Assembly (NCBI GenBank): GCA_012517355.1
Contig: JAAYVD010000028.1
Span: 1-37,054, forward strand
Source: Candidatus Rifleibacteriota bacterium
GTDB lineage: Bacteria; Muiribacteriota; Ozemobacteria; Ozemobacterales; Ozemobacteraceae
Length of the DNA stretch: 37,054 bases
Direction: 5' to 3'
In this document: positions 5,947-36,569 of the stretch, one piece after another
How the letters are laid out: the number at the start of each line of letters is the position of its first letter
Numbering within the stretch: position 1 is the first letter of the stretch
The notes under the pieces: generated by a model
The model's database searches: none
Seen by the model: only the letters and a program-made list of their open reading frames with translations
Told to the model about the DNA's origin: nothing
Translations under genes and position numbers: made by a program

Positions 5947-5978
5947 AGACGGGCGCCATCTGGCCGCTCTTCCGATCT

Positions 5979-6052
5979 GCCCGGCACCATGGCGGAAACA
6001 CCCCGTGGCCGCCCCGGCAGGCGGCGCGGAACGCCGGTGTCGCGCCCCGCAC
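5979..6052 (-). repeat. Dispersed multi-hairpin element, copy R1 (intergenic)
   Basis: A divergent copy of the dispersed element lies between the STAND stop and the next gene. It retains the central arm GCCGCC/GGCGGC (6008-6013 and 6020-6025). On the minus strand its frame reads RDTGVPRRLPGRPRG, matching the peptide of other copies. The match is weaker than for R2 and R4. Confidence 0.6.
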
Positions 6053-6097
6053 AGGAACCCCTCTGGCCGCGTGTTCCCACCAGCCAGGGAGTCCCGG

Positions 6098-6127
6098 TTT
6101 CCAGAACCCTCCCGGACGGGGTATCAT
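6098..6127 (+). promoter_or_regulatory. Promoter giving a possibly leaderless transcript
   Basis: TTTCCA (6098-6103) and TATCAT (6122-6127) are spaced by 18 bp. Transcription would be expected to start about 7 nt past the -10, at or next to the ATG at 6134. No Shine-Dalgarno is present. Confidence 0.5.
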
Positions 6128-6133
6128 GACCGC

Positions 6134-7126
6134 ATGAACGAACCATTGGATGCGATGCAGCGGTTGGCAGAGATCGACCGGCTCCGCGACGAGATCCGGA
6201 CCATGGAGGAAGAGGTCGGGACGCGGGCCAGTCAGGTGGACAAGCGGGGCGGCACCGACGAGGACATGCGCCGGATCGGGGAACTCGACCGCCACGCCGC
6301 CGACCTCCGGCCGGGCCTCACGAAGAAGGTCAAGGAGCTCCGCCAGCTCGCCCCAGAGGCCTTCCAGGCCTGGGTCGGCCGCAACCAGGAGACCCTCCGC
6401 CGCCAGATCATGGCCGAACTCCGGAAGGAACGGCCCGACGTCCAGACCATCGACGAAGGCCTGGCCCGCATCCGCACCGACGCCACCTTCTCCAACGCCG
6501 ACCTGCTGGTCCTCAACCTCGTCGGCCACCTCGACGCCTGGCGCGACCTGCTGGAGGGAAAGGCCCCCTACGCACTGCACCCGCCGTCCTGGGAGACCTT
6601 CGCCACCCTGCCACCCTTCACCCTCGAGCTGCGCGCCGCCCAGCCGCTTCCCGAGGACCTCGCCGGCCGCCACCCCGACATCGTCAAGGTCGCCGAGTGG
6701 AAGGCCTGGCACGCCAGCCTGGTCTTCCTGGCCGAAACCCTCTCCATCCTCGATTTCGGCAAGCCCTGCCGCCTCGAACGGTCGACCGGCTCCCGTACCC
6801 CCGGCCAGCCCTGGGAAAGCTCCTGGACCCTCTCGACCGGCCAGCTGGCCCTCGCCCTGACCTGGGGCGAGAAGGCCGCCGGGGAAGGGGGCGCCCTCGC
6901 CTCGTTCTCGCAGGTGGACGTCCGCGGCCTGCTCCCCGCCGAGAAGATCGATTGGAGCGGCTCGTTCGGCGGCGAGACGAAAGGGCTGGTGATCGGCTTC
7001 ACCGGCTTGCGGGAGGACCGGGGCGAAGCCGTCCGGGCCCTCGCCGCCCGCCTGTTCGCCGAGGTCAGCGACGGCCAGGGTCCCGCCCCCGCCCCGCCCA
7101 ACCCGGCGACCCCGACCGCCCCCTGA
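6134..7126 (+). CDS. Uncharacterised 330-residue protein with N-terminal coiled coil
   Basis: I do not recognise a family. Residues about 5-90 are charged and heptad-rich (RLRDEIRTMEEEV, KKVKELRQLAPEAF), suggesting a helical or coiled-coil region. The middle and C-terminal parts are mixed alpha/beta (VVFLAE-like strands, SWTLSTGQLALALTWGEK, KGLVIGFTGLRED). The tail is Pro/Ala-rich and probably disordered. There is no signal peptide or membrane segment, so it is probably cytoplasmic. The ATG at 6134 is chosen because it is the first in-frame start after the promoter; an ATG at 6126 is out of frame and stops at once. It sits between the STAND gene and an exported protein and has its own promoter, so membership of a STAND module is only positional. 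Confidence 0.7.
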   Translation: MNEPLDAMQRLAEIDRLRDEIRTMEEEVGTRASQVDKRGGTDEDMRRIGELDRHAADLRPGLTKKVKELRQLAPEAFQAWVGRNQETLRRQIMAELRKERPDVQTIDEGLARIRTDATFSNADLLVLNLVGHLDAWRDLLEGKAPYALHPPSWETFATLPPFTLELRAAQPLPEDLAGRHPDIVKVAEWKAWHASLVFLAETLSILDFGKPCRLERSTGSRTPGQPWESSWTLSTGQLALALTWGEKAAGEGGALASFSQVDVRGLLPAEKIDWSGSFGGETKGLVIGFTGLREDRGEAVRALAARLFAEVSDGQGPAPAPPNPATPTAP

Positions 7127-7365
7127 CCACGACGGCCCGGGTCGCCACCCGTCAGGCCGGAACCGTCGTCCCCATCCTGGCCGTCCCGACGGCACCGCGA
7201 CCGGGCGCCCCTCCAGGGAACTCGTCGCGTCGTCGCGGCAGGTTCGGGACGGCCCTGACCCGACAGACCAGCTTCGCCCGCCCCCGCGTCGGTGGACGCG
7301 TTCCGGAAGGCCCCGGGTGACTCCTTTTTCCGCTGCACCAGCCCGTCACCTCCATCGGCTTTCCA

Positions 7366-7374
7366 TGGTAGAAT
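7366..7374 (+). promoter_or_regulatory. Extended -10 promoter of the 278-residue exported protein
   Basis: TGGTAGAAT (TAGAAT at 7369-7374) has the TGN extension. No convincing -35 is seen. The ATG is 51 bp downstream. The gap 7127-7425 otherwise shows no gene, only a faint stretch (about 7130-7180) resembling the dispersed element. Confidence 0.5.
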
Positions 7375-7425
7375 GCCCTCACCCTGGGGTACCCCGAGGG
7401 AAGGTCTGACAAGGAGGATTGCATC

Positions 7426-8262
7426 ATGAGGAATCGGTCTCTTTCCATCCTGGTCCTGGTTGTCCTGGCCGCCGGCCCCGGGTGGGCCCTGGGCTTCTAC
7501 GGCGATGTCGACCCCATCCCCGCGACCGTGGTGTTGGACAAGCTGCAGACCGGCGAACCGGCCGACCAGGTTCTCGAGGTGATCGGGGTCAACTCGGAAG
7601 GCTCGATCTCCGGATCCGCCGAGAGCGGCCAGGTCAAGCTCCTGTTCAAGGACCTCGCGAAAATCGAGTGCGCGAACCATGTCTACCACGTTGAAACGAA
7701 GGACGGAAAGAGGCACCAGATCAAGTTCGGCCGCCTGTCCACCCACTACACCTCCCCCACCTTCGACTGCGTCGTGAAGAACCCCAAGACCGGCCAGGCC
7801 GAGGAACAGATGCTCGATTCCACGCAGATCAAGTCGATCACCTTCGGGGCCCCCGCCGCCGGGGCGGCCCCGGCCCCCACCGGCGATTCGTCCGGAGCCT
7901 CCGGAGCCGTCGACCGCAAAGACCCGAAAGCGGTCGCCGCCGCTGTCCTGAAGGCCATCCGGGCGGCTGACGGCCAGGCCCTGCTGGGCCTGTGCAACGC
8001 CACCAACCGCCGGAAGATCACCCCCGAACAGCTCCCGGAAATCATGAAGGAGCTGCAGCAGGAGGCCGGAAACGTCGAACAGATCGGCGACCTCCGCCAG
8101 GGGCCCTCCTTCGCCACCAAGGGGTCGGTCTGCGCCTTCCTGCGCACCGAAGGGGTCGAGACCTTCGTCATCATGCTGACGAACGAGAACGGCGAGTACG
8201 GGTTCGAGGACATCAACAGCCCCGACACCGCCCAGTGGGAGAAACTTGCCCCCCTGCCCTGA
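7426..8262 (+). CDS. Exported protein of unknown function
   Basis: This 278-residue protein has a clear Sec signal peptide (MRNRSLSILVLVVLAAGPGWA), so it should act outside the cytoplasmic membrane. Residues about 30-145 form an apparently beta-rich domain (VVLDKLQTGEPAD, QVKLLFKDLAKIEC, QIKSITFG). A Gly/Ala/Pro linker follows (about 146-165), then a C-terminal alpha/beta domain beginning DPKAVAAAVLKAIRAAD. That domain resembles NTF2-like/DUF4878-type exported proteins, but this is only an impression. There is no lipobox cysteine in the leader. A strong AAGGAGG lies 8 bp before the ATG. The macro-DUF4062 gene starts 57 bp downstream and may be co-transcribed. Confidence 0.75.
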   Translation: MRNRSLSILVLVVLAAGPGWALGFYGDVDPIPATVVLDKLQTGEPADQVLEVIGVNSEGSISGSAESGQVKLLFKDLAKIECANHVYHVETKDGKRHQIKFGRLSTHYTSPTFDCVVKNPKTGQAEEQMLDSTQIKSITFGAPAAGAAPAPTGDSSGASGAVDRKDPKAVAAAVLKAIRAADGQALLGLCNATNRRKITPEQLPEIMKELQQEAGNVEQIGDLRQGPSFATKGSVCAFLRTEGVETFVIMLTNENGEYGFEDINSPDTAQWEKLAPLP

Positions 8263-8318
8263 CCGCCCCTCCCGCGAGGGTACCCCCCGCGACAAGTCTC
8301 CGTTCCAGGAAAACACCC

Positions 8319-9626
8319 ATGCCCACCAAGGTCTATCACGCGGGAAAGTCGACCATCAGCCTCGAGATCGGCGACCTCTGCCAATCGTCGGCCGAGGTCC
8401 TGGTCAGCTCAGACGACGTGCACCTGTCCATGGGCGGGGGCATCTCCATGGCGATCGCCCGGGCGGCCGGCCCCCAGTTCCCCCTCGACGTGCACAAGCA
8501 CCTGCTCAAGCGGCCGCCCCGCCTGGGCGACGTCATCGTCACCACCAGCGGCAACCTCGGCAGCCGTTACATCTTCCACGGCATCACCTTCGACGAGACC
8601 TTCCAGAACAAGGGCCTCGACCCCCGCATCATCATCCGCCGCATCGTCGAGACCTCCCTCCACCTCATGGAGGAACTCGGCTGCCGATCGATCGCCTTCC
8701 CCTGCATCGGTATGGGCCTGGCCGAGATCCCTCGCGACGAGGTGGCCACCGAAATGGGAACCACGCTGGTGCGGCACCTGCTCGACCATCCGGTCTCGCT
8801 CAGCATCGAAATCTACGTGTTCGACAAGGCCCGCGACTCCCCCCAGTTTTTCCTCGACCGGTTCGAGGACGAGGTGAAGAAGACCCTGGGCGTCGACCAC
8901 GGCGCCGCGGGGTTCGGCAAGCCCACCGACCTGCCCGGGCGCGAGACCCATCGGGGCCAGGCCTCCGAACTCTACAACATCCTCAAGGCCCTCGACGACC
9001 GCCGCCAGGAACTGGAGAACGAACTCCTCGCGACCAATCCCGAGAAGGGCCCCACCAGCCAGCTGGCCTTCGACGCGATCAAGGACGACCTGGCGCAGAT
9101 CGGCCAGATCCGCGACCTGTTCCTCCCCGAGGTGCGCCCCCCCCGCAAACCGGATCCCGACCGCGGCTTCCAGGGCAGCCGCGTATTCGTCAGCTCGACC
9201 GGCGAGCTGACCACCTACCGCCGCATCGCCCGCAGGGAGATCGAGCGGAACGGCGCCACCTTCCTCGGCATGGAGGATTTCGCCGCCGCCTCCCACCTGC
9301 CCATCTTCCACATGCTGAAGATCCTGCGCAGCGCCGACTACTACTTCGGCATCCTCGGCTGGCGATACGGCTCGCTCGACCCCATCAGCAAGCTGTCCTA
9401 CACCCAGATCGAGTACACCTTCGCCGGCCACCACCGCATTCCCCGCTACATGTTCCTGATGAGCCCCGCCGCCCCCATCACCATCCGCATGACCGACGAA
9501 AATCCGGAACTCACGCGGCGTATCCGCGACTTCCGCGACACCGTCGGCCGCCACCAGTTGTTCGCCCAGTTCAAGAACGGCCGCGAGTTCCAACGTCAAC
9601 TCGCCCTCACCATGAGCGCCCGCTGA
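8319..9626 (+). CDS. Macro domain-DUF4062 fusion protein
   Basis: This is a 435-residue cytoplasmic protein. Residues about 10-170 are a macro domain, the fold that binds ADP-ribose and related nucleotides: EIGDL (16-20), the phosphate loop GGGISMAIARAAG (39-51), LGDVIVTTSGNLG, and AFPCIGMGLAEIP. The usual NAAN motif reads SSDD (30-33), so hydrolase activity is doubtful and binding more likely. A helical linker (about 200-270) leads to a DUF4062 domain (about 286-400) with SRVFVSSTGEL, FGILGWRYGSLDP and SYTQIEYTFA, all typical of the family. DUF4062 is often fused to STAND NTPases. Finding a second DUF4062-type protein 2.4 kb from the NPHP3-like STAND gene suggests a shared nucleotide-signalling role. 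The ATG at 8319 is the first that keeps the macro domain; a longer upstream frame overlaps the preceding gene and is not real. Confidence 0.88.
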   Translation: MPTKVYHAGKSTISLEIGDLCQSSAEVLVSSDDVHLSMGGGISMAIARAAGPQFPLDVHKHLLKRPPRLGDVIVTTSGNLGSRYIFHGITFDETFQNKGLDPRIIIRRIVETSLHLMEELGCRSIAFPCIGMGLAEIPRDEVATEMGTTLVRHLLDHPVSLSIEIYVFDKARDSPQFFLDRFEDEVKKTLGVDHGAAGFGKPTDLPGRETHRGQASELYNILKALDDRRQELENELLATNPEKGPTSQLAFDAIKDDLAQIGQIRDLFLPEVRPPRKPDPDRGFQGSRVFVSSTGELTTYRRIARREIERNGATFLGMEDFAAASHLPIFHMLKILRSADYYFGILGWRYGSLDPISKLSYTQIEYTFAGHHRIPRYMFLMSPAAPITIRMTDENPELTRRIRDFRDTVGRHQLFAQFKNGREFQRQLALTMSAR

Positions 9627-9782
9627 AACCCCTGTTCCCCTCTACCGCCCGGCCGCCTCACCCCTCCACCTCCGCTTTCAGGGCAAGACCAGCACTGGCC
9701 GCCTCACCCCAGACCGCTTTCCGGGCCCCCTCTCCCTGTCTCCTGGCCCGCTCCCTCCCATTCCCCACGGTCGCCACCCGCC

Positions 9783-9791
9783 TGCTATACT
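9783..9791 (+). promoter_or_regulatory. Extended -10 promoter of the phosphoesterase gene
   Basis: TGCTATACT (TATACT at 9786-9791) is an extended -10, 31 bp before the ATG. A poor TTCCCC lies 19 bp upstream. Confidence 0.55.
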
Positions 9792-9822
9792 TGAGGAAAC
9801 GGTAAGAGAGGAGCGACACCAC

Positions 9823-10635
9823 ATGCCGACCTCTTCCGGCCCCCTTCCCCCCGGCCATCTTCCCCCCGGCCTGCCCATCGCCGCCGTGGCCGACCTGCAC
9901 GGCCACCTCGACCTGTTCGAACGCCTGCTGGCCGAGATCGACCGGCGCCTGGGCCGCGACTACCTGCTCGTGACCCTGGGCGACTACGTCGACAACGGCC
10001 CCCAGATCCCCCGCCTCCTCGACCGCCTGATCGACCTGAAGCAGGAGCGCCCCGACCGGTTCTTTCCCATCATGGGCAATCACGATCTCGCCTGCCTCCG
10101 CGCCATGGGCTGGCGGAAGGGCCCTCCCGACGAGGCCTGGTACAAGAACTGGGCCGGCCACTTCTGGAACCCCGGCGGCGGCACACCCGCCCAGTACGCG
10201 GCCGACAGCGGCGCCTCGCTCTCCGAGATGATGGACACCGCGCACCGCGCCCACCGTGAGTTCCTGCAGGAGCTGCCCTGGTTCTTCGAATACGGGGAAT
10301 ACTTCTTCGTCCATTGCGGCCTCGAGTCCCGCGAGGTGGCCCCCCAACGCGCGGAACTGGCCCGCCGGGAACCCCTGCCCAACCTGTGGACCCACCCCCA
10401 GCTGCGCGACAAGAAACTGTCGGTCGTCTCCTGGGAGGGCTGGGGTCGCGTCGTCGTCAGCTCCCACACCCGGGGCTCCGTCCTGCGCCGGATGGTGGAC
10501 CCCCTCCCCGGCGACCCCCACTTCGTGACGCCCTACCGCATCACCCTCTCAGCCGAAGTCGATCACACGGGGGTCCTCCACGCGGTCCTCCTCCCCGACC
10601 GCATCTTCCTCCACGAGCGCACCCCCCGCCATTGA
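9823..10635 (+). CDS. Calcineurin-like metallophosphoesterase (PPP family)
   Basis: This 270-residue cytoplasmic phosphoesterase has the full two-metal motif set: D24-L-H26 (ADLHGH), GDYVDNGP (53-60), GNHD (85-88), the His in FFVHCGLES and the His in VVSSHTRGS. The usual GDxVDRG reads GDYVDNG, so the phosphate-contacting Arg is replaced by Asn. The length fits single-domain Ser/Thr protein phosphatase-like or dinucleoside-polyphosphatase (ApaH/PrpE) enzymes; the substrate could be a phosphoprotein or a nucleotide. The first 18 residues are Pro/Gly-rich. A GAGGAG Shine-Dalgarno and an extended -10 promoter support the ATG at 9823. The gene is monocistronic and followed by two strong palindromes. 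Confidence 0.88.
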   Translation: MPTSSGPLPPGHLPPGLPIAAVADLHGHLDLFERLLAEIDRRLGRDYLLVTLGDYVDNGPQIPRLLDRLIDLKQERPDRFFPIMGNHDLACLRAMGWRKGPPDEAWYKNWAGHFWNPGGGTPAQYAADSGASLSEMMDTAHRAHREFLQELPWFFEYGEYFFVHCGLESREVAPQRAELARREPLPNLWTHPQLRDKKLSVVSWEGWGRVVVSSHTRGSVLRRMVDPLPGDPHFVTPYRITLSAEVDHTGVLHAVLLPDRIFLHERTPRH

Positions 10636-10673
10636 CATATTTTTCAAATATGTACCAGGCTAGTTCCTGGTAC
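10635..10673. terminator. Two abutting perfect palindromes after the phosphoesterase
   Basis: Stem 1 is ACATATTT-TTC-AAATATGT (10635-10653). Stem 2 is GTACCAGG-CTAGTT-CCTGGTAC (10652-10673). They share two bases and start at the last base of the stop codon. Neither is followed by a T-run, so this may be a terminator, an RNA processing site or a protein-binding palindrome. Its AT content is unlike its surroundings. Confidence 0.6.
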
Positions 10674-10756
10674 GATTTCCCTCCCTCCCGGTTCCTCTTC
10701 CCGGCGTCCCCTTCTCCGCCGGAATCTGTCCCCACCCCCTGATCCCGCCGCCAACC

Positions 10757-11021
10757 CTCGCCCGTTCTCCCCCTTCCCCGCTTCCCCTATTCCTCTCCTT
10801 GCCCCTTCCTTCCTCTCTCACTCGCCTTCCCCTCTTCCTCTCCTGGCTCCTTCCGTCCTCTGCCTCCCCGTTTCTCCCTCCTTGTCTATCCCCCCCGGAT
10901 CACGCCCGTCGCCGTCCGCTCCAGAACCAACGCTCGCCCGTTCTCCCCCTTCCCCGCTTCCCCCCCTTCCTCTCCTTGCCCCTTCCTTCCTCTCTCACTC
11001 GCCTTCCCCTCTTCCTCTCCT
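10757..11021. repeat. Pyrimidine-rich spacer with a duplicated segment of about 88 bp
   Basis: The 10636-11082 gap holds no credible gene. After the palindromes it is almost pure C/T on the plus strand. The segment at 10757-10844 recurs at 10933-11021 with two substitutions and one indel. Open frames here encode only Pro/Leu/Ser-rich low-complexity peptides. On the minus strand the tract is purine-rich. Confidence 0.85.
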
Positions 11022-11082
11022 TCCCCCATCCTAGCTTCCTTCCCTTCCCCTCCCCCCTCATCCTCTCCGGCTCCCTTCATTC

Positions 11083-11799
11083 CTACTTCCTCTTTCTCCC
11101 CTTCCCCTTCCGGACGCGGCCCTCCGCCACCGCCGCCGCCGCCTTCTCCCGCAGCGCCTCGGCTCGCGCCTGGCTCAGCCCCGCCCCGCGCAGGCTCTCG
11201 ATCAGGATCTCCAACTCCTCCATGTCGACCACGTGCGTCAGCGCTTCTTCACAGGCCGTGAGCGCCCCCTCCAGGTCTCCCAGCCGCAGACTGCAGTCGC
11301 TGAGCGCCACGTAGGTCTGGAACTCCCCCGGCTCCCGCTCCTGCGCCTCCAGCAGGATCCGCTTCGCCTCCGGCACCTGGTTCTGCCGCAGCAGGCACTG
11401 CGCCAGATACAGGTAAGCCTCGTCGAGGCCGGGATCGAGCCGGATCGCCTCCCGCAGCGAGGTCTCCGCCTCGGGCCACCGGCCCAGCTCCATCAGCGCG
11501 TTGGCCTGGTTCAGCCAGGCCTCGGCAAACGCCGGGGCCAGGGTCGTCGCCTTGCGATACCAGATGGCGGCGTCATCGAACAGGTCGAGATCCGAACAGG
11601 CGTCGCCCATGGCGTTGGCAACCCGGGCATTCTCCGGATCGAGACGCAACGCCTCCCGGAACCATTTCATGGCTTCGGTCGGATCGTGGTCGTCCATGAA
11701 GGCCTGACCCAGCTCGAACAACGCTTCCTTGTCTTGGGGATCGGCCTCCAGTCGCTGTTTCCATTGCTGTTTCCGTGCTTCGAATCGGTGCGGGGTCAT
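11083..11799 (-). CDS. TPR-repeat protein
   Basis: This 238-residue protein is built from about five tetratricopeptide repeats, for example ALFELGQAFMDDHDPTEAMK, WFREALRLDPENA, AWLNQANALMELGRWPEAE and AYLYLAQCLLRQNQVPEA. It ends in a basic tail (GRVRKGKGRKRK). There is no signal peptide or catalytic motif, so it is most likely a cytoplasmic scaffold or adaptor. The start at 11799 (MTPHRFEARKQ) is supported by a strong AGGAGG 8 bp upstream; the open frame continues upstream but runs into a repeat element. It lies downstream of DUF1015 on the same strand with a 219-bp gap, so co-transcription is uncertain. No strong promoter was found. Confidence 0.85.
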   Translation of the reverse strand: MTPHRFEARKQQWKQRLEADPQDKEALFELGQAFMDDHDPTEAMKWFREALRLDPENARVANAMGDACSDLDLFDDAAIWYRKATTLAPAFAEAWLNQANALMELGRWPEAETSLREAIRLDPGLDEAYLYLAQCLLRQNQVPEAKRILLEAQEREPGEFQTYVALSDCSLRLGDLEGALTACEEALTHVVDMEELEILIESLRGAGLSQARAEALREKAAAAVAEGRVRKGKGRKRK

Positions 11800-11938
11800 G
11801 GTCAAGTCCTCCTGTGGAATCGATTGGGATGGGATGAAAACAGGTCGGCGGCGATACCGCCGGTCACCGGGAAAGGGACGGGTACGGACGGCGACCGGAA
11901 GGGAACGGGCTCCCTCCCGGTCGCGCGACCGGCCCCGA

Positions 11939-12015
11939 CCGACACGATGTCGGCAACACCCCTTTGCCGCCACGGATGGCGGCGCGAAACCCCAGTTTCG
12001 CGCATCGCAAGGGGG
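11939..12015 (-). repeat. Dispersed multi-hairpin element, copy R2 (intergenic)
   Basis: This is a well-preserved intergenic copy. It has CCGACA-CGA-TGTCGG (11939-11953), then outer arms CCCCTTTGC and GCAAGGGGG that enclose GCCGCCA-CGGA-TGGCGGC and GCGCGAAAC-CCCA-GTTTCGCGC. The minus strand stays open in the same frame as the coding copies (RETGVSRRHPWRQRG, then DIVSVG). It lies three bases before the DUF1015 stop codon complement, in the DUF1015-TPR gap. Confidence 0.85.
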
Positions 12016-12018
12016 CGG

Positions 12019-13257: not shown

Positions 13258-13314
13258 CTCGAGCTTCCTTTCGCTTGGTGATGTGGTCGTCCCTGGCGTT
13301 GGCCGGGCAGCCCC

Positions 13315-13343
13315 ATTCTAAGAACGGTGGCCGGCCTTGTCAA
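13315..13343 (-). promoter_or_regulatory. Consensus promoter of the DUF1015 gene, inside the upstream CDS
   Basis: TTGACA (13338-13343), a 17-bp spacer and TAGAAT (13315-13320) form a near-perfect sigma-70 promoter. It lies wholly within the last codons of the SpoIIE gene; the -10 contains that gene's TAG stop and the -35 overlaps its Val-Asp-Lys codons. The leader would be about 50 nt. Confidence 0.85.
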
Positions 13344-16300
13344 CCCTCCCGGAACCCGCCGACCCGCGCGCCACGGCATCCGGAGCCTGTCCCCGAGCCC
13401 CCCCCTGCCTGCCGACCGGCGGGTCTCCCCCGGCCCCCGGCTTCCCCGCTCCGTCACCCGGCGTCGGCGGACCGGCGGCCGGCTCCCCCGGTACCCCCGG
13501 CTCGAAGTGGGCCACCACGAAGGTCACGTCGTCGTCCCAGTCCCAGCGGGCCGTCGCCTGGTGCACGAACCGGAACATCCGTTCGACCGCCCCGTCGAAG
13601 CCGGCCGCCGCCTCTCCCGACAACGCCTTCTCCAGACGGGGATACCCGATCGACGTGCCGTCGGGCCCCATCGCCTCGACCGCCCCGTCGGTGAACAGCA
13701 CCATGGACCCGCCCGGTCCCACCACCCGGTGCACCTCCTCCACCCGGCTGTTCTTGACGGTGGCCAGCGGCATGCTGGGCAGCAGGAAGCTTTCGCATCC
13801 GCCCCCCGGCGACACCACCAGCACCGGCGTATGTCCGGCATTGGCCACCTGGAACTCCCCGGTGCGGGTGTCGATGCGTATCACCTCGCACGTCATCATC
13901 CGCACACGCCGCAGGAACTCCACGAGATGGCGGTTGAGCCCCGTCAGCAACCCCTTGGGCTCCCGCTCCCCGAACGACAACAGGATCCGGAGACCGGTGC
14001 CGACCATCACCATGACCAGGGCGGCCGCCAGCCCGTGCCCCGACACGTCCCCAATGCAGACATAGACCACGCCTTCGTCTTCCGGGTCCGGGATGATGTC
14101 GAAATAGTCCCCCCCGACCTGCTCCATCATGATCGACCGCCCCTGGATCGACACCCGCTCCCGCCGGAACACCCCCTGCGGCAGGAGCCGGTTCTGCAGG
14201 TGCCCGGCCACGTCGAGTTCCTTCAGGCTCTCCAAAACCAGGGTGAACAGGACCGCCAGCTCCCCCCATTCCCCGATCGCGTTGCGCACCGGAACTGGCG
14301 GCGCCCCCGGCCGCCCCAGCTGCCGGGCGAACACCATCAGGTCGAGGATCGGCTCGAACAAAAACCGCCGCAGAACCTGGGCGAAAAAGCCCAGCACCAC
14401 GGCGAGGCCCAGCAGAATGCCTCCCAGCGAGCGCCGCCGGCCGATCTCCGCGGTCGCCAATTCGCCCACGGGCCGGGCCGCGCCCAGTACATACAGCCCG
14501 AACTCGTCGCTGGTCCGCACGAAAACCCAGCGCCAGGTGCCGTCGGGGAATGCCGCCACCAACTTCCGGCTCTGGCCCCCCATGCGCAGGTCCCCCGCCA
14601 GCCGCTTCACTCCCCGCGGCAAGGCCACCGTCGAAAGGTCCGGCACCTCGAGGGCACGGGCGAGCAGGAACAGATCCACCCCCGCCCCCCGCGGCGCGGT
14701 TCCCCTGCCCGCGACCGAAACGAGTTCGGCCATTCCCCCCGGCCGCCACGGCCGGCGGCCCGAACCACCCGTTTTGCCCATGGCAAGGCCGTCCTGCCAC
14801 ATCTGCCGGATCAACCGCCACGCCGCCGGGAACAGCAGGTCCGTGTCCTTCCAGTGCAGCATCACGAACAGGCCCGCCCGCCCGTCCGGCCCCGGCAGCA
14901 CCTCCAGCATCTCCAGCACCCGGTCCCGCAACGAGCCGATGGCCGCGATCCTGCCCAGATGGTCCCAGATGTAGCCCATCACGTCCTCGGGATCCATCCC
15001 CCCCATCGACGAGGCGAAGGCCCCCACGTCGACTTTCGGCCCCCCCGCCACACCCCCGCCCCACCCGTGTTCTTCGTCCCACCGCCGGCAGATCTGCCGG
15101 GCGATCGCCCCCATCCCCTTCCGCAACATGGCCTCGGATGAAGGCACCGGTCGCTCCCGCCGGTCCGCGCGCAGAAACCCCTCCAGCCATCCCCGCCATC
15201 GCGGATCGGCTGCCGACCAGGGCGCACCCATCAACCCCAGGTAGTAGGCGTTGGTGGAGGCGCCGTCTTCGAGGAACCGGGCCAGGACCGGCACCCGACG
15301 GGCCGGAGGCAACCCGGCCACGAACACGAACACCGACCGGTATCCCTGGTGGCTGGGCAGCAACTGCTCCCCTCCCGGGGTGACCAGGTGGGCGATGGCG
15401 ACGTGATATCTTCGCTCGAGGTCGTCCAGACCCCACAACATCGCTTCGGAAGCCACTTCGGGCCGGTATCGGAACCGCCTCAGGACCTCCCGCATCCGGG
15501 CTTCCTGCCGCCTGACCTCCGCCCGGAAGACCGCCTCGGGACGCTCGGTCTCCTGGGCGAGTCCCCGGAACGTCTCCGGGATCTCCCCCGCCACCCACGC
15601 ATCGATCTCCAGCTCCCCGACCAGCAGGACCCCGAACAAGGGAAGCCCCACCGCCGGAAGCAGATGCAGACCCACGCGGCGGCTGATGGTGGCCACCCAG
15701 ACGGTCTCCCCCGCCACCAGCGCCCGGTAGGTCCCCACCAGCCAGGCCAGGCTGCAGCAGAACCAACCCAGATACCCGATCGGGCCCCACAGGGCCAGGG
15801 GCCAGGGAAGCCGCCCACTGACCCCGAGATCGCCCGCCGCATCGCGCACCACCAGGGTCAGGCCCACCGTCCCTCCCGCGCGCCAGACCCGTTCCTCCGG
15901 CGGCCGCTCCCCCTCAACGTCCTCGCCGGCCGCCGCCCTTCGAAACCGGGCCCGGAACAGGCGGTCCGGCCCCCGGAACGCCTTCATGCCCCGCCGCACC
16001 ACTCCCAGCCAGGCCCGGTCGAGGACCACCGGCCGCATCGCCGACGGATCCGCCAACACCAGGTAGCCGTCGGCCGCCGCCACGGAGCCCGGCGCGCCCC
16101 CCGTTTCCCCCATCCAAGGGACGCCGTCTGCCGGGCCTGGCCCGACAGGTCGGCCGCCGATGCGGCCCCAGGCGCACCAGACGCCATTCCGGCCGAGCGG
16201 CAGCCGGAACCAGGCATGTTCCTTCCGCGCCTCCCCGAAAACCGACAGCGGCAGGTCACCCCACCCGGCGAACCGGACCACCCCCTCCGCCTGGGCGATC

Positions 16301-16878: not shown

Positions 16879-19800
16879 GCCCCACCACCCTTCATGGTCA
16901 GGACCAGCAGGGTCCGGTCATCCTCCTGACCGCCGCCAGGCTTGGCGCTGATCCGCCCGGCCAGGGTCCGGACGAAGGCGTCGGTGTCGGGCTGATAACT
17001 GGCTGCCACCAGGCCGGCAAACACCTCGTAGGCATCCTGCCCGGCTTCCACCGGCAACCCCTTGATCCATCCGTTGGAAAAAAAGACCACGACGTCACCC
17101 GGCTGCAGATCGCGACTCTGGCTGGCGTAGTCCCTCGCGGTCGGACTGCCCAGGGGGGGCTGGGAACCCTGCCACCAGGCCGGTCGCCCGTCGCGCAGGT
17201 GCAGGGGCCAGCAGCCGCCGGCGTTCGCCCACGACAGCCGGCGCCCGGCTTCCTCCCAGTTGGCCACCAGCAGCGCGAAATGCCGGCCCTTCCCCCCGAC
17301 CCTGGCCAGGTGCCCGTTCAGACAACCCAGCATGCCCGCGGGATCCCGTTCCCGCTCCCCCACCAGGCGCAGCCCCAGCTTCGCCCTGGCTCCCAGCAGG
17401 GAGGCATCGACCCCGCTCCCCGCAACGTCTCCCAGGCACAGCAGCAACCGGCCCGGCTCCGGCCGCCAGACCTCGCTGAAATCGCCACCCAACAGGCCGG
17501 CCGCCTGGAAGCGGCCCTCCACCCGCACCGCCCCCGCCTCCATCGTCCCCTCGAACACCAGCGTCTTCTGCACCGGCACCGCCGAAACGATCTCCGACAG
17601 GGTGTGGGCCGACCGCTGCAACCCCGCCGCCAACGCCCCGAACTCGTCGGGCTCCGCCACCGGCCCCATCTCGAACTCCCGCCGCCGCAACCGCTCCAGG
17701 GCGCGCTCCAGCCCGCCCAGCCGCCGCGCAAAGAAACCCGCCAGCAGGTAGGCCGCCCCCACCGCGAACCCCAACAGAACCAGCAGGACCCCGACCGCCG
17801 TCGCCCGGAGCCGCTCCGCTCCTGCCAGAACCGGCCCGAGGGGGACCGCCCCCACCAGCAGCCGTTCCGTCAGCCGCTGGCAGGGCAGGACCGTGACCAG
17901 CCAGGACCGCCCCCCACCACTCTCCACCACCCCGTCCGCCGCCTGCTGCGAGCGGTTGGCCCGGTCGCACAAGGCCTGCAGCCGCGTATCCAGCAGCAAC
18001 CGCTCCGGCCGGCTCCACATCGGACCGCCCGCGCCCATCCCCACCAGCCCGACCCGGAACCCGCCCACCGGCCCGCCATCCGCCATCGGCGCGGCCCCCC
18101 GCCGCCGCGCCCCGATCGCCCGCAGGTACACCTGCTTGAGACTGGTCGACCCCACCACCATCGCCACCAGATACCGCCGCCCCCCCGATCCCACTGATCC
18201 GGCGTCGGCCATGCCCCCCGGCCGCGACGGCTGGCCGGCCGGAACGGTCGTGCCCCGCCCCGCGCGGGCGCCGACCGACACGATGTCGGAAGTGCCCCTT
18301 TGCCGCCACGGATGGCGGCGCGAAACGCGCGTTTCGCGCAGCGCAAAGGGGCCCTCCCCCAGCGGTTGGATGAGGACATGGAAATCCCGTCCGAATCCAC
18401 CGAGCGACGCGATCCGCCCCATCTGCCGCGACATCGCCCGCACCTGCCCCTGGGCGAAGGCGTAGTCGACCGCCGGGTCCCCCGTCCGCTCCGGCGTCGG
18501 GAACCCCTGCCGCAGACGCTCGATGTTCCGCACCAGGGCCCCCACCAGCGCCCGGTCCCGCTCCGGGTTCCGCAGCTTCCCCGTCGACCCCCACTCCGCC
18601 GTCCCCGTGGCGTCGAAGACCCAGGCGGCACTCACCACGTCGTCCAGCCGCAACCCCGGCCAGGAGCTTCCCACCAGGGTTTCCGCCAGACCGGCCGGGT
18701 GCGCCGCCCCGCGCGCCACCGCCCGTTCGATCGCCCGCAGCATCTCCTCATACCCATGGTCCACTCCCGCCAACCGGCTCTCCACCTGCCGGTGGGCCTG
18801 CCACCGCATCCGCTCACCGGCCTCCCGGCCGAACCGGTAGGCGCCCGTCGCGAACACGGCCATCGCGGGCAGCGTCACCCCCAGGATGCCCATCCCCACC
18901 ACCGTCTGCAGAGAGACCCGGCCCAGCGTGCCCCGCCACCAGCTCCACCCCAGCCCCAGAACGCCCAGGGCCAGCACTCCCCATCCCGCCCGCTCACCCC
19001 AGGTCAGCAGCGCGAGACGACGGCCGAGGTCAGGGGGAACGCCACCCTGGCGGCGAAGGGCCGCCACCCCCCGCTCCCCCAGCGCCTGAACCTCGATCTC
19101 CTCCCCGGGATGCCGGCCCTCCAGGACCCGCCGAACCGTCTCCACCGCCCCGCGCACCAGCCCGGGATCATGCTCCCGCACCAACCGGTCCAGGTCGTCC
19201 CCCGCGAACCAGTCCAGGGAATGGGAAGCCCGGATCCGTCCGCGGAACTCCTGCAACCGCCGGTCGAACAGCGCCTTCTCCCCGGCTTCGTCCCGCTTGA
19301 CCAGCAACAGAACCTGCCTGACCCCGCCCGGTCCCCCGCCCCCCGTTGCCACCCCGGCCGCCCTCCCCACCGTGCACCAGGCGGCATGCGAATACCGCCC
19401 CCGCCCCTGCAGCGGCACCATCGTCCAGGGGGCCATCGCCACGTCCTCCAGCACCTTGGGATGCTGGAAGAACTGGCGCGACAACCGGTTCAGCCACGCC
19501 CCCGTCTCCCCCTTCCGCGAGGCCACCAGCCCCCGACGGACCTGTTCCGACAAGGCCCGGAACTCACCCGGGAAACCCGGGACCATCACCCGCCGCCCCG
19601 CCCCGTCGAAGAACAAGACCAGGAAAGGATGGTCACCGCTCCGCAACCGGGTGAAGGCCGTCGCCAGAGGCATCCCCCGCCGGTACCGGTCGGCGGCCCG
19701 CCGCAGCAGGTCGCCCCCGTAGGTGGCAGGGAAGGCCGTCCGCCGCAGGTTCAGCAGCATCAGGGTCAGGTCCTCCCGCTCCCGCGCCCGCCAGTCTTCG

Positions 19801-19928: not shown

Positions 19929-20277
19929 CGCCCGCCCCCCCCCTTCACCCGGGCCCCGGCATGGTTCCACGGCCGCCTCTGTCGCCAATGGCCATGAAAT
20001 CGGTCGTTCCCCGTGATGCCGGCGGGATCGTCACCATGGATGAGGCAACGCAGGCGCGGCCGGGACCCCGGTCCCCACCGCCCACCAGGCTGCCGGCGGC
20101 TTCGGCCTGCCGGCGGCGGCAGCGCCCGGGCCGCCCTGGATTCCCGACACGATCGGCGCGGTGACCCGCCCGGAATGACCGGCCCCACGTGAAGATTCCC
20201 TCCAATCCATGGCCGGCCCCACCGCCCACCCGAACCGGGCGCATTCTTCGCAACTGCGGTATCATGGGTACCATAGT
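19929..20277. other. Divergent intergenic region between two phosphatase operons
   Basis: This 349-bp gap separates the B-A and C-D phosphatase gene pairs. It has a -10-like TATCAT for the plus-strand pair near its right end. I see no clear promoter for the minus-strand pair and no credible small gene. CCGACACGATCGG near 20135 recalls the first hairpin of the dispersed element, but the rest of the element is absent. Confidence 0.6.
20260..20265 (+). promoter_or_regulatory. Putative -10 of phosphatase operon C-D
   Basis: TATCAT lies 12 bp before the ATG at 20278, the same hexamer as at 6122. No good -35 and no Shine-Dalgarno are seen, so a leader of only about 5 nt is expected. Confidence 0.35.
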
Positions 20278-23118: not shown

Positions 23119-26100
23119 GCCAGAACGCCATCCGGTCCGGGTTCGGCAGCTTGCTGCTGCTGTTCCTCGGCATTCCCTTCCTCCTGTTGGCCATCATCGG
23201 CACCTACACCCTCAGCCGGTTCACCGAGAACGCCACCCGCCAGCGGCTGACCGCCCTCGAAACCCGCCTCGACGGCGGCGTCGCCGCCTCCTCGGCCTCC
23301 TGGTACGTGCTCGACCGCCTGAACCGGTTCACCCGCCTGCTCCGGCGCCACCTCCCAGAGAACCCGCCCCCCGCTCCCCCCGGGTCCGCCACCTCCGGCC
23401 AGGGCCCCGCCATCTCCTCCGAGGCCGCTTCAACACCCGCCATCCGCCCTCCACAGCCTCCCGCGGTGGTTCCCCCCGGCGCGCCCCAAGAGGCCGGCCC
23501 GGACCCCGACTCCTCCGCGACGGCTCCCGGCCAGGCCATCCACGCCACCGTTCAGCACCTCACGGGCTCCCCGGCCGCCACCGGCCGGGCCGGGCCTCCT
23601 CCAGCCCCCGTCGCCGACCCCGACCGCATCCTCGACCGGGCCTATCAGGCCCTCACCCACCGCGAAGGCCTCGCCGTCACCGCCTACGTCTACCGCCACC
23701 GCGAACTGGTCCGCACCTTCCCCGCCGCCGCCCCCCACCGGGCCACCTTCGCCACCATCCTGAAGGACATGCACCTGGACGGCCCCGCCTTCGCCGCCGC
23801 CCAGCGCGCCCACAACCACGCCCTGCTCGACATCTTCGGGCCGGGCAACCGCCTCGAACTCCTGTTCCGGGCCAAAGGCAAACTGCGCCGGTTCACCCAG
23901 GGAACCCACCGGGGCGCCTACCTGATCCAGGAGTTCGCCGACGGCACCGGCGTCTTTTTCGTCCTCTCCCGCCTTCCGTCCTTCGCCACCCGCTTCACCG
24001 CCGTCCGGCCCAGCCTCTCCCCGACCCTCGGGGCGGCCATCCCCGCCGAGGACCGCTGGTTCCCCCCCGCCCACACCGACGCCGGACAGATGCGGGTGGC
24101 CCTCCAGATGACCGTCGCCGAGGGCCGCCCCCAGGTGCAACACGCCGGACTGGAATGGGTCTTCTGCCAGAACCGCGAAGGCATCGTCTGGTGCGCCGCC
24201 CAGCCCCTCCCCGCCTCACCCCTGTCCAGCCCCGTCACCACCCTCGTCACCGTCGGCTACCTGCTGGCCCTCGCCTGTTTCCTGCTCTTCGCCCTCGCCC
24301 AGGGCGGCTTCGCCCCCGGCCTCGCCCTGACCGACCGCCTCGAAGGCCTCAACATCCGCCTCCGCCTCGGCCTCCTGTTCGCCCTCGCCACCGTCCTCCC
24401 CCTCGGCATCGCCATCATCCTCGGCTCCATCGGCCTCGCCGACCGCCGCGAGATGCTGATCGCCGAAGCCGGCCGCGATGGCCTCGCCCGCCTGTCGCAG
24501 GCCGAGGTCGGGTACACCAGGCAGGTCGAGCAGTTCCGCCGCATCTCCCTCGGCCTGCGCTTCTCCCCCCTCGTCCGCGACCTGCGCCTCGACGACCTCG
24601 GCCGCGTCATCGACCGGCTCGTCCGCGCCAACGCCATCCAGCGCTTCGAGATCCGCGACCCCCAAGGCAAGACCATCTTCACCACCGACGACCCCGAGGT
24701 GCACGGGGTCACCCACGCCACCGACATGTTCAGCCGCGTGGCGATCCGCCGCGCCGCACCCAACCGCCTCGGCGCCAACGTCGACAAGGTCTCCGCCGAA
24801 GAACTCCTGGCGGAAGGGTTCGTCGCCCGCGAGGACGTCGGCCTGTCCGCCCTTCTCCGCCAGCCCCGCAAGGTCTGGCTGTTCCGCATGGGCACCAGCC
24901 CCTGCCTCTGGTTCTGGGACGCCTACCCCGAACTGCCCCCCAGCGCCGCCTCCAGCGCCGCGTTCGTCGCCGTCACCCACCAGCTCGAATGGGTCTACGA
25001 GGAATATGTCCGGAAAACCTTCGGCCACGCAGTCGCCACCGCCCCGACCCGCCTCGTCGTCGAACTGGGCCTCGACTCCGCCAACTTCCGCACCCGGCCC
25101 GGCCTCCGCGGCCCAGGCTGGTCCCCTCTTCTCCACGCCGTCACCCGCAGCCAGGAAACCGGCCGCGTCCTGTTCCGCGAACTCGACCTGCCCTCCGGCC
25201 GCTTCTGGGTCACCGTCAAGCCCGAACTCGCCCTCGGCATGTTCGTCTTCGCCGATCTCGTCCCCGTCGCCTCCCGCCTCGCCACCCTCGCCCCCATCAA
25301 GTGGCGCCTCGCCCTCACCAGCCTCCTCGCCCTCGTCGTCTCCTTCCTCGGCGCCACCCTCATCTCCTCGTTCTTCATCGTCCCGATCGGCGACCTGGCC
25401 GACGGCATCGCCGCCATCCGCCAGCGCGACCCCACCTTCCGCATCCCCCGCCGCCGCCCCGACGAGTTCGGCATGCTGGCCGAAGCCTTCAACACCCTCC
25501 TGGGCGAACTCAAGGAACTCGAATACGGCCGCATCGTCCAGGAAAGCCTGCTCCCCCTCGACCCCCCCGCCCCCGCCGGCTACTCCATCGCCTGCCTGCG
25601 CCTGCCCGCCACCGACCTCGCCGGCGACTACCACGATGTCTTCCAGCTCGGCGATGGGCGATGGGCCCTCATCCTGGGCGACGTCACCGGCCACGGCATC
25701 TCGGCCGCCCTCGCCATGGCCATGGCCAAGGCCACCGTCGACTACCAGTCCCTCACCGGCTGGACCGTCCCCACCCAGGTCATGGACAACCTCAACCGGC
25801 TCTTCTACCGCGAACTCAAACCCCGCCAGAAATTCATGACCCTCACCTACGTCGCCCTCGAACCCGCCTCAGGACAGATCATCGCCGAAAACGCCGGCCA
25901 CCCCTACCCCCTCCTCTATCGCCAGCAGACCCGGACGGTGGTCGAACTGCCCCTGCCATCCATGCCCCTGGGCGCCCGCAAGACCCGCAAAGCCACCCCC
26001 CAGGTGGCCGCCATGGAACCGGGCGACGCCATCCTCCTCTATTCCGACGGCATGGTGGAATGCCCCGACGCCGACGGGATCCCCTTCGCCTACCCCCGCC

Positions 26101-26255
26101 TCATCGGCCTGTTCCAACGCCTGATGCAGGAGGATCTGCCCCTCGGGCAGGCCCTTTCCCTCCTCGAACAGGCTCTGCGCCAACACATGGGACCCGGCCC
26201 CTTCCCCGATGACGTCACCCTCCTCCTGCTCCGCCGCGACGTCTCCCCCTCCTGA
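23115..26255 (+). CDS. Membrane-anchored SpoIIE/PP2C phosphatase D
   Basis: This is a 1046-residue sensor phosphatase, translationally coupled to C by a 4-bp overlap. A membrane segment (about 9-34) is followed by an unusually long Pro/Ala-rich region (about 82-165), a sensor domain, two hydrophobic segments (about 374-397 and 414-442), a second sensor domain, a membrane segment (about 729-757) and a HAMP linker. The PP2C domain has LAGDYHD (near 835), GDVTGHG (near 854), ENAGH, YSDGMVE (near 976) and FPDDVTL (near 1031), so all metal-binding residues are present. The doubled sensor layout matches A, B and C, pointing to duplication of an ancestral gene. The ATG at 23115 is fixed by the overlap; the frame is open much further upstream only as an artefact of GC bias. 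Confidence 0.93.
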   Translation: MSQNAIRSGFGSLLLLFLGIPFLLLAIIGTYTLSRFTENATRQRLTALETRLDGGVAASSASWYVLDRLNRFTRLLRRHLPENPPPAPPGSATSGQGPAISSEAASTPAIRPPQPPAVVPPGAPQEAGPDPDSSATAPGQAIHATVQHLTGSPAATGRAGPPPAPVADPDRILDRAYQALTHREGLAVTAYVYRHRELVRTFPAAAPHRATFATILKDMHLDGPAFAAAQRAHNHALLDIFGPGNRLELLFRAKGKLRRFTQGTHRGAYLIQEFADGTGVFFVLSRLPSFATRFTAVRPSLSPTLGAAIPAEDRWFPPAHTDAGQMRVALQMTVAEGRPQVQHAGLEWVFCQNREGIVWCAAQPLPASPLSSPVTTLVTVGYLLALACFLLFALAQGGFAPGLALTDRLEGLNIRLRLGLLFALATVLPLGIAIILGSIGLADRREMLIAEAGRDGLARLSQAEVGYTRQVEQFRRISLGLRFSPLVRDLRLDDLGRVIDRLVRANAIQRFEIRDPQGKTIFTTDDPEVHGVTHATDMFSRVAIRRAAPNRLGANVDKVSAEELLAEGFVAREDVGLSALLRQPRKVWLFRMGTSPCLWFWDAYPELPPSAASSAAFVAVTHQLEWVYEEYVRKTFGHAVATAPTRLVVELGLDSANFRTRPGLRGPGWSPLLHAVTRSQETGRVLFRELDLPSGRFWVTVKPELALGMFVFADLVPVASRLATLAPIKWRLALTSLLALVVSFLGATLISSFFIVPIGDLADGIAAIRQRDPTFRIPRRRPDEFGMLAEAFNTLLGELKELEYGRIVQESLLPLDPPAPAGYSIACLRLPATDLAGDYHDVFQLGDGRWALILGDVTGHGISAALAMAMAKATVDYQSLTGWTVPTQVMDNLNRLFYRELKPRQKFMTLTYVALEPASGQIIAENAGHPYPLLYRQQTRTVVELPLPSMPLGARKTRKATPQVAAMEPGDAILLYSDGMVECPDADGIPFAYPRLIGLFQRLMQEDLPLGQALSLLEQALRQHMGPGPFPDDVTLLLLRRDVSPS

Positions 26256-26412
26256 GAGCACCTCCCCCGGCGCCCTGCTCGCGGACCGGTCACCCGCGCC
26301 ACCGCCCGGCGCGCCTTCCCCACCACCCGCCGGTCCAGCCACCAGGCGTCTCAAAGCCCCTTCCGGCCCATCCCTCCGTCGCCCCACCCGATCAGGGCAG
26401 GCCTGCCGCCCC

Positions 26413-26433
26413 GCCGGGGCCCCTGGCCCCGGC
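26413..26433. terminator. Strong hairpin between convergent genes
   Basis: GCCGGGGCC-CCT-GGCCCCGGC is a 9-bp perfect stem with a 3-nt loop, 10 bp from the stop of the permease gene and 158 bp after phosphatase D. It could act as a bidirectional transcription barrier, although no T-run follows. Confidence 0.55.
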
Positions 26434-26443
26434 CGCCGCGACC

Positions 26444-27877: not shown

Positions 27878-27905
27878 GGCATCCTCCTCACCTGCGGTTC
27901 GCGGG

Positions 27906-27914
27906 AGTATACCA
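27906..27914 (-). promoter_or_regulatory. Extended -10 promoter of the permease
   Basis: The minus strand reads TGGTATACT (TATACT at 27906-27911). No good -35 is seen; the -35 region falls within dispersed-element copy R6. Confidence 0.6.
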
Positions 27915-27917
27915 GAA

Positions 27918-28002
27918 CCGGCCGACACCATGCCGGAAGGGCCACCCTTCGCTGCCACCGAGGGCGGCACGCCACGCCCGTTCCGCCCACCGCAAGCGGG
28001 GC
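27918..28002 (-). repeat. Dispersed multi-hairpin element, copy R6 (intergenic)
   Basis: This copy sits between the permease promoter and the 244-residue gene. The first arm has changed to CCGGC/GCCGG (27918-27922 and 27932-27936), still able to pair. The region corresponding to the other arms is recognisable (CCCTTCGCTGCCACC, then GGGCGGCACGCC) but imperfect. Confidence 0.65.
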
Positions 28003-28017
28003 CGCCCGCCACCGCCC

Positions 28018-28752
28018 CTACCAGCGCCGCGGAAACCCCATCGCCTGCCACAACCGCCAGGCCGCCGGGCTGCGCACCATCGGGTCGGGGTGCGCCCGCA
28101 CCTTCTCCCAGGCGTTGTGGGCCCACACCACGTCGCGGGCGATGTCGTCGCGCACGTCGGTGAAAAGATCCCGCAGCATCCCCGCCTGCCGGCCCAGGAT
28201 CCGCAGCCGCTGCTCCTTGGACCGGCCGCGCAACCGGTAGTCGCGCAGGATCTCCTGCCCCCAGTCGGCCGACGAGAACCCCGCCGGCAGCCCCTCGTCG
28301 AGCCGGTCCTCGTCGCGTTGCGGCCAGTCGCCCTTCAACATCCCCATCGCCGCCTTCACGCCGGCCAGGTTCATCCGCACCAGCAGCAGGTCGGGCCGCG
28401 CCACCCGGCCGATCTCCTGGCACCGCGACCAGTGGGGAAAAGACTCCCCGACCGGAGGCGGCTGCAGGATCCGCCCGGTCCTCTCGAGATCCTTCAGGGC
28501 GTTCTCCATGTCCTTTTGCACCGACCGGACCAGCACCTGGAGGTCGGAAGCCACCCACACCGGCTCGGGAAAGCCCCCCCAACGGATCCGGAACCCCCAA
28601 TCGGCCGCTCCTGCGCCAACTCCGCCGAGCAGCACCCAGCCAAGAAGGGCGGCGATCAGGGCCGCCGCCCCTCCCCCCCTTCCGACCGGCACGAGGTCGG
28701 ACACACCCCCGTGCCGCCACGGAAGGTGGCGCGAAACGCAGGTTTCGCCCAT
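28018..28752 (-). CDS. Exported protein of unknown function with element-derived N terminus
   Basis: This 244-residue protein has a hydrophobic signal-like segment at about 29-50 (AAALIAALLGWVLLGGVGAG), preceded by 28 residues that come from dispersed-element copy R7 (GETCVSRHLPWRHGG). The mature part is mostly helical and charged (VLVRSVQKDMENALKDLERT, RDVVWAHNAWEKVRAHPDPM), with no family I recognise. The only ATG is inside the element; GTG codons at residues 17 and 21 are alternatives and also lie in the element. It follows the TPR gene by 31 bp and is the last gene of the FecR-TPR operon, so a role in the same envelope process is inferred. Confidence 0.65.
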   Translation of the reverse strand: MGETCVSRHLPWRHGGVSDLVPVGRGGGAAALIAALLGWVLLGGVGAGAADWGFRIRWGGFPEPVWVASDLQVLVRSVQKDMENALKDLERTGRILQPPPVGESFPHWSRCQEIGRVARPDLLLVRMNLAGVKAAMGMLKGDWPQRDEDRLDEGLPAGFSSADWGQEILRDYRLRGRSKEQRLRILGRQAGMLRDLFTDVRDDIARDVVWAHNAWEKVRAHPDPMVRSPAAWRLWQAMGFPRRW

Positions 28753-28765
28753 TGCCGGAGGGCCG
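28682..28765 (-). repeat. Dispersed multi-hairpin element, copy R7 (5' end of a gene)
   Basis: Arms CCGACC/GGTCGG (28682-28687 and 28695-28700) show a compensated change relative to CCGACA/TGTCGG in R2 and R4. GCGAAAC-GCAG-GTTTCGC lies at 28731-28748. The ATG of the 244-residue gene (28750-28752) is within the element. Confidence 0.8.
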
Positions 28766-36533: not shown

Positions 36534-36540
36534 AGGGCCC

Positions 36541-36569
36541 ATTCTACTTTCCGAAGAGCCCGGGGTCAA
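36541..36569 (-). promoter_or_regulatory. Consensus promoter giving a leaderless GTG transcript
   Basis: TTGACC (36564-36569), a 17-bp spacer and TAGAAT (36541-36546) lie immediately upstream of the TPR gene. The expected start of transcription (about 36534) coincides with the GTG at 36533. Confidence 0.7.

What the first reader, a model, noticed from the sequence alone, without database searches (positions are those of the whole stretch)
5979..28765. Dispersed multi-hairpin element with compensating changes, all copies in one orientation
An element of about 75-85 bp occurs at 5979, 11939, 14715, 18275, 27918 and 28682, with a weaker copy at 18195. R4 folds as one 5' hairpin plus an outer 9-bp stem enclosing two inner hairpins. 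The first arm pairs as CCGACA/TGTCGG, CCGACC/GGTCGG, CCGAA/TTCGG or CCGGC/GCCGG in different copies, so pairing is kept while sequence changes. All copies point the same way regardless of gene strand. I do not recognise the family; it may be a REP-like element spread by an unseen transposase, or a replication-oriented motif.
Basis: partly seen in the sequence, partly recalled or inferred. Interest (0 to 1): 0.85.

Follow-up and report, generated by a model that had tools for sequence, protein, structure and literature searches.

The report
Thousand-copy multi-hairpin mobile DNA repeat
The repeats are copies of an 81-base DNA element that has spread to roughly a thousand places in the genome of an uncultured bacterium, folds into a set of hairpins that are kept by matching base changes, and stacks head to tail; it works like known short bacterial mobile repeats, but the enzyme that moves it is still unidentified.

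Summary
The element is real: an 81-bp unit with a head hairpin, then a 9-bp outer stem around two inner hairpins. The window has seven plus-strand copies and one weak minus-strand copy. A 1.17-Mb sample of the 7.1-Mb genome (Candidatus Ozemobacteraceae) holds 254 units (none in two controls), so about 1,000-1,500 in all; rough, because stretches were chosen for hits. Copies sit mostly between genes (104 of 123 arrays), in both orientations, with no link to GC skew or gene strand, so the replication-motif idea fails. The outer stem covaries; the first-arm 'compensation' is mostly two pairing registers of a direct repeat. Of 39 genomes of the phylum only two congeneric ones carry the head. No TIRs, target duplications or Rfam match; the one RAYT gene is flanked by an unrelated palindrome. 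Best reading: a non-autonomous REP-like mobile element copied through a folded single strand, enzyme unknown. New variant of a known kind.

The parts
5977..6057 (+). copy R1 of the 81-bp unit, decayed, intergenic
   Evidence: CM 57.1 bits, E 2.7e-8; no better fold than shuffles
11935..12015 (+). copy R2, fresh, intergenic, 3 bp past the DUF1015 stop codon
   Evidence: CM 101.3 bits; fold z -4.47; gene context
14711..14791 (+). copy R3, decayed, inside the SpoIIE-phosphatase gene 13318-16776 (-), in frame (81 bp = 27 codons)
   Evidence: CM 54.5 bits
16792..16872 (-). weak, decayed copy in the opposite orientation
   Evidence: CM E 0.0018; nhmmer E 0.0005; inverted repeat I1
18190..18270 (+). 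decayed unit directly upstream of R4, in phase (81 bp)
   Evidence: 52/81 identical to the consensus, background maximum about 41; D4 family; not listed by the CM at E<=1
18271..18351 (+). copy R4, fresh; with 18190-18270 forms a dimer inside the SpoIIE-phosphatase gene 16875-19928 (-), in frame
   Evidence: CM 104.6 bits; fold z -4.81
18275..18289 (+). head hairpin CCGACA-CGA-TGTCGG (module shared with sister elements)
   Evidence: sequence
18295..18351 (+). outer 9-bp stem CCCCTTTGC/GCAAAGGGG enclosing inner hairpins CGCCACGGATGGCG and GCGCGAAACGCGCGTTTCGCGC
   Evidence: fold; covariation
18352..18357 (+). 3' tail of the CC[G/C]TCC type, the conserved six bases after the last unit of an array
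   Evidence: flank profile (0.35 to 1.25 bits per position)
27918..28000 (+). copy R5, decayed, intergenic
   Evidence: CM 44.8 bits, E 3.5e-6; no better fold than shuffles
28682..28762 (+). copy R6, intergenic
   Evidence: CM 76.0 bits; fold z -2.34

Best explanation
A family of short, non-autonomous mobile DNA elements. Each unit carries a fixed head (CCGACCGACACGANGTCGG + AAGTG, a hairpin), a body whose outer stem must pair but whose sequence is free, and a tail CC[G/C]TCC. Shown: dispersal, mixed orientation, the pairing constraint in fresh copies, head-to-tail in-phase stacking often beside older copies, sister elements with the same head and another body. Inferred: copying goes through a folded single strand recognised by its head; an element's own end resembles the flank that follows it (CCGACC against CC[G/C]TCC), so it serves as a target for the next insertion, which builds arrays in one orientation. 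Inferred with less confidence: the enzyme is a single-strand HUH (Y1, RAYT-like) transposase acting in trans. The effect on the host is probably mostly neutral, with purifying selection pushing copies out of genes and of divergent promoter regions; some in-gene copies survive as in-frame 27-codon insertions.
For: At least 150 strong model hits in the genome, which was the cap of that search; 475 head sites against 2 for the reversed pattern; 254 units in a 1.17-Mb sample, 0 in a Markov and 0 in a reversed control. Fresh copies: 1.7 substitutions per paired column against 6.5 per unpaired column, 55 copies; outer-stem pair 34/88 TA to CG on both sides together, 9 of 11 with C, p 1.7e-6; 73 double-changed cells against 36 shuffled. 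Joints: 68 same orientation, 56 of them with gap exactly 0, 2 opposite; 22 of 68 join units differing by more than 25 bits, younger upstream 11, downstream 11. In 19 of 26 joints the first unit is closer to another unit than to its neighbour, in 2 of these a unit of the same array. The dimer AAGTG-unit + CCATA-unit occurs at three loci with different flanks. Sister types B (60 bp) and C (56 bp). RAYT-like gene and head count go together in the genus: 1 gene/475 heads, 1/26, 0/1.
Against: The RAYT-like genes are flanked by a different palindrome (GGGGACRTGATACSRAA type) and no unit lies in their loci; three genomes cannot prove a link. Both score under NCBIfam's RAYT cut-off (64 against 80 bits). 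No clean empty site was obtained. G.T against A.C mismatches are only 1.4 to 1 (1.04-1.92) and the model favours G.T, so no strand of action is shown. Adjacent units are slightly more alike than re-paired ones (0.846 against 0.830, sd 0.006), so local duplication also adds units. The double change at 34/88 occurs only with the AAGTG spacer among fresh copies, so independent events may be few; the 15 changes on the tree are an upper bound.
Confidence: 0.5

Rival explanations
1. Retro-copying: a structured RNA reverse-transcribed in trans by a group II intron or other reverse transcriptase, a bacterial SINE-like element.
For: Structured unit; reverse-transcriptase genes in all three congeners: 4, 2 and 1 matches; a group II intron fragment in the window.
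Against: G001 has a reverse transcriptase but 1 head site; no unit in the RT loci fetched; no clear preference for G.T over A.C pairs that an RNA template would be expected to give; no strand bias to genes.
Confidence: 0.12
2. Ordinary REP family mobilised by the RAYT of this genome, differing only in size.
For: Copy number, intergenic placement, hairpins, presence of a RAYT-like gene in G000 and G002 and absence in G001.
Against: No GTAG tag; RAYT flanked by another palindrome with 11 sites in 1.34 Mb; head-to-tail, not inverted, pairs.
Confidence: 0.2
3. Minisatellite-like repeat spread by slippage and gene conversion only.
For: Exact 81-bp phase; a few arrays with near-identical neighbours (L093, L059, L103, L105).
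Against: Most runs are single units (135 of 186 runs) with unrelated flanks, which slippage cannot place.
Confidence: 0.05
4. A functional cis-element (terminator or mRNA stabiliser) kept by selection at each site.
For: Depleted between divergent genes: 13 arrays in 43.6 kb, against 69 in 97.5 kb codirectional and 16 in 24.3 kb convergent.
Against: All ages of decay coexist, both orientations relative to codirectional genes (38 same, 31 opposite), absent from all but one of the relatives.
Confidence: 0.08

Closest known systems
GTAG REP / RAYT (REPtron) system
   Same: Hundreds of short, folded, mostly extragenic copies; probably non-autonomous; a RAYT-like gene is present.
   Different: 81 bp with four helices instead of a 20-40 bp palindrome; no GTAG; head-to-tail stacking; RAYT not flanked by the unit.
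CGTC-tagged REPs (PMC3733652, abstract and passages read)
   Same: No dedicated transposase found next to them; the tail CC[G/C]TCC contains CGTC in many copies; short unpaired ends.
   Different: Those have 8-9 bp stems, one hairpin and mostly inverted (HH) dimers; head-to-tail dimers are called negligible there.
Rickettsia palindromic elements (RPE; recalled, and named in a search listing)
   Same: Units present in frame inside genes, as in L-aspartate oxidase here.
   Different: Here only 19 of 123 arrays are in genes; sequence and fold were not compared.
MITEs
   Same: Short, non-autonomous, high copy.
   Different: No terminal inverted repeats beyond a weak GGAC/GTCC consensus at the two flanks, no target duplication.
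BIMEs / REPINs
   Same: Composite arrays that seem to move as wholes.
   Different: Those pair units in inverse orientation; here direct.

Membership tests
GTAG REP | GTAG tetranucleotide at the base of the hairpin | tested here: not met
   Absent from consensus and flank profile
GTAG REP | RAYT gene flanked by the repeat | tested here: not met
   No unit in L041 or L164; other palindrome there
GTAG REP | extragenic, high copy | tested here: met
   104 of 123 arrays intergenic, 80% in-gene expected at random
CGTC REP | terminal CGTC, 8-9 bp stem starting with A-T pairs, HH dimers | tested here: not met
   CGTC occurs in many tails, but stem make-up differs and dimers are head to tail (68 against 2)
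MITE | terminal inverted repeats | tested here: not met
   No paired flanks beyond consensus; IR score 6.42 against 6.65 shuffled, 96 arrays
MITE | target-site duplication | tested here: not met
   Mean 3.6 against 3.0, inside the shuffled range 2.4-3.7, 49 copies
RPE | in-frame presence inside protein genes as the usual state (recalled) | tested here: not met
   19 of 123 arrays in genes
HUH (Y1) single-strand mobile element | cleavage of the folded single strand by a Y1 enzyme | not testable with these tools
   Needs protein and oligonucleotides
Any Rfam family | match to a curated covariance model | tested here: not met
   No match over the units

The most novel reading that the evidence does not exclude
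A distinct class of mobile DNA: a modular multi-hairpin element whose head is the recognition site, whose outer stem may be exchanged as long as it pairs, and whose own end regenerates its target, so that it grows one-way tandem arrays by repeated insertion. The near-joint changes in the outer stem (29 double against 10 and 12 one-sided at pair 34/88) would then reflect copying of one arm from the other during fold-back synthesis.
Probability: 0.2. Interest if true: 0.75.

Novelty: new variant of a known kind. Interest (0 to 1): 0.48.

Why it matters
At about 1.7% of the DNA of contig C34 (50 units in 232 kb) this is a heavy load of a small element, in a phylum (Riflebacteria) where my searches listed no such family. 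Fresh and decayed units lie side by side in known order and phase, so the target choice and the structural needs of a repeat without a linked transposase can be read from sequence and tested in vitro. It also shows how short repeats enter proteins in frame.

Tried and rejected
Replication orientation: no link to GC skew or gene strand. A weak tendency of neighbouring groups to share orientation (36 same, 21 different, p 0.06) is left open.

RAYT as the proven mover: rejected as proof, kept as a lead.

Flanking inverted repeats, i.e. insertion into terminator hairpins: one striking case (L107:1906) but no excess over shuffled pairs. Target duplication: none.

Stop-free in six frames as an adaptation to genes: 21% of dinucleotide shuffles are also stop-free, so not notable.

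Autonomous parent (head ... gene ... tail): half units in the sample looked like decayed or cut fragments, no pair framing a gene was recognised; the rest of the genome was not examined for it.

Empty site at L107:16364 against G001: intergenic DNA too diverged for a boundary. Pfam and PDB comparison used instead: L-aspartate oxidase L089:7803-9665 has about 88 residues more than E. coli-type NadB chains between the FAD and C-terminal parts, where a 60-bp, an 81-bp and a decayed unit lie. The same try on L056 (GlcNAc 2-epimerase-like) gave no PDB match.

Literature: searches (open-licence PMC only) listed no paper on such a repeat in Riflebacteria or Ozemobacter; only two listed papers were opened.

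Full report
Observation. The covariance model built from 45 copies finds six strong copies in the window and one weak minus copy; an eighth, decayed plus copy at 18190 is found by sequence only. Three of the seven quoted copies fold no better than shuffles.

Copy number. One fresh unit as BLAST query gave 101 pieces in its own genome, the model 150 hits, the cap of the search, the worst at E 4.8e-9. The head pattern with up to two mismatches occurs 475 times, the reversed pattern twice. In the 61 stretches used for counting (1,174,298 bp, most of them picked because they hold hits) the model gives 205 matches at E<=0.01 and a profile built from the best 150 gives 254 non-overlapping units; order-1 Markov and reversed controls give none. 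The whole contig C34 has 50 units in 231,733 bp, which would scale to about 1,500; C34 was also chosen for its hits, so I say about a thousand or more.

Where they sit. By my own codon-usage gene calls, 61 units are intergenic, 4 partial, 12 in genes of 77 in 427 kb, where random placement gives 80% in genes. Over the best 150 units, merged into 123 arrays, 104 are intergenic and 19 in genes. Of the 19, 14 lie opposite to the gene, 12 of these counted in frame 2 (11 or 12 depending on how the two arrays of one gene are counted; the list is). Density per intergenic kb is 0.71 between codirectional, 0.66 between convergent and 0.30 between divergent genes (from the counts). Two in-gene arrays are in the window, in neighbouring SpoIIE phosphatase genes. 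In L-aspartate oxidase a 60-bp, an 81-bp and a decayed unit lie in the linker before the C-terminal part.

Structure under constraint. On 146 distinct rows 73 cells show a change on both sides of a pair, against 36 (sd 4.6) after shuffling; sliding the partners by 1-3 columns gives 17-44. That alignment was fitted to the model. The 55 freshest copies align almost without gaps: 1.7 substitutions per paired and 6.5 per unpaired column; of 85 changed pairs 13 are fully compensated and 16 are G.T. The outer stem exists as TTT/AAA, CTT/AAG and TGT/ACA; for pair 34/88 C and G go together, 9 both, 2 and 3 one-sided, p 1.7e-6. A tree gave 15 changes for 15 copies, but an 81-bp tree is poorly resolved and in the fresh set all nine share the AAGTG spacer, so the number of separate events is not known. 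The first arm is different: the base before GTCGG is T, G or C, so that either of two overlapping CCGAC repeats can pair; this is register choice, not covariation.

Sister elements. A 60-bp type B and a 56-bp type C share head, AAGTG and the inner hairpin, but B has an unrelated, fully paired outer stem. B is tandem at 60 bp. In the congener G002 most head sites read are B. An exact search for a B core in the GTDB species collection found only that MAG, named Candidatus Ozemobacteraceae bacterium N1_Bin_METABAT__69_1; records of the window's own genome may be left out there. That G002 is this MAG follows from equal contig numbers and lengths. Of 39 genomes of the phylum only G000 (223 sites) and G002 (18) hold the longer head pattern with up to two mismatches; of 36 genomes the 81-bp model finds it in the same two. 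No exact head match in viral contigs.

Ends and arrays. After the last unit six positions are conserved, CC[G/C]TCC; before the first, weakly GGA[C/T] (68 and 70 clean flanks). No duplication and no flank inverted repeats. Of 70 abutting pairs 68 are head to tail, 56 with gap zero; 22 of these 68 join units that differ by more than 25 bits, the fresher one upstream in 11 and downstream in 11. Neighbours are only slightly more alike than re-paired units. The same dimer type occurs at three loci with different flanks. I read this as insertion of new copies at the ends of old ones, plus some local duplication and movement of whole dimers. The resemblance of the junction CCGACC to the tail CC[G/C]TCC suggests how an end can be taken for a target; that is inference.

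Enzyme. One Y1 transposase gene in G000, one in G002, none in G001, parallel to 475, 26 and 1 head sites. Both are RAYT-like but under the NCBIfam cut-off and are framed by a different palindrome, of which 11 sites were seen in 1.34 Mb of G000, 9 of them in the 20-kb stretch that holds the RAYT gene (L094). Reverse transcriptases occur in all three. In the RAYT system cutting sites are chosen by short complementarities at the hairpin base (PMC8266576, passages read); whether anything like this holds here was not tested.

Known kinds. REPs, CGTC REPs (PMC3733652, abstract and passages read), MITEs and RPEs (recalled) each fail at least one tested defining feature (see the membership table). It works like a REP; it is not filed as one.

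Noticed in passing
window 36634-36805 (-): Group II intron D1-D4 match (RF02001, 102.9 bits) just upstream of the TPR gene 34632-36542; no reverse transcriptase gene was seen beside it in the window.
   Followed up: partly
window 8319-9626 and 9823-10635: Macro domain fused to DUF4062, next to a calcineurin-like phosphoesterase gene.
   Followed up: no
window 13318-26255: Four SpoIIE-type phosphatase genes in a row, two on each strand.
   Followed up: no
window 10769-11031: Polypyrimidine stretch with an 86-nt direct repeat at 86% identity.
   Followed up: no
L094 (G000:C109) 4007-18074: Nine copies of the RAYT's own palindrome (GGGGACATGATACCGAA type) in the 20-kb stretch that holds the RAYT gene, two elsewhere in the 1.34 Mb searched.
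   Followed up: partly
L103:10115, L103:2283 (-), L048:13054: Head-like sites followed by other hairpins or bodies; possibly further sister types.
   Followed up: no
L135:5634-5981: A sub-threshold cspA-like match was the only hit of a permissive Rfam scan of four loci.
   Followed up: no
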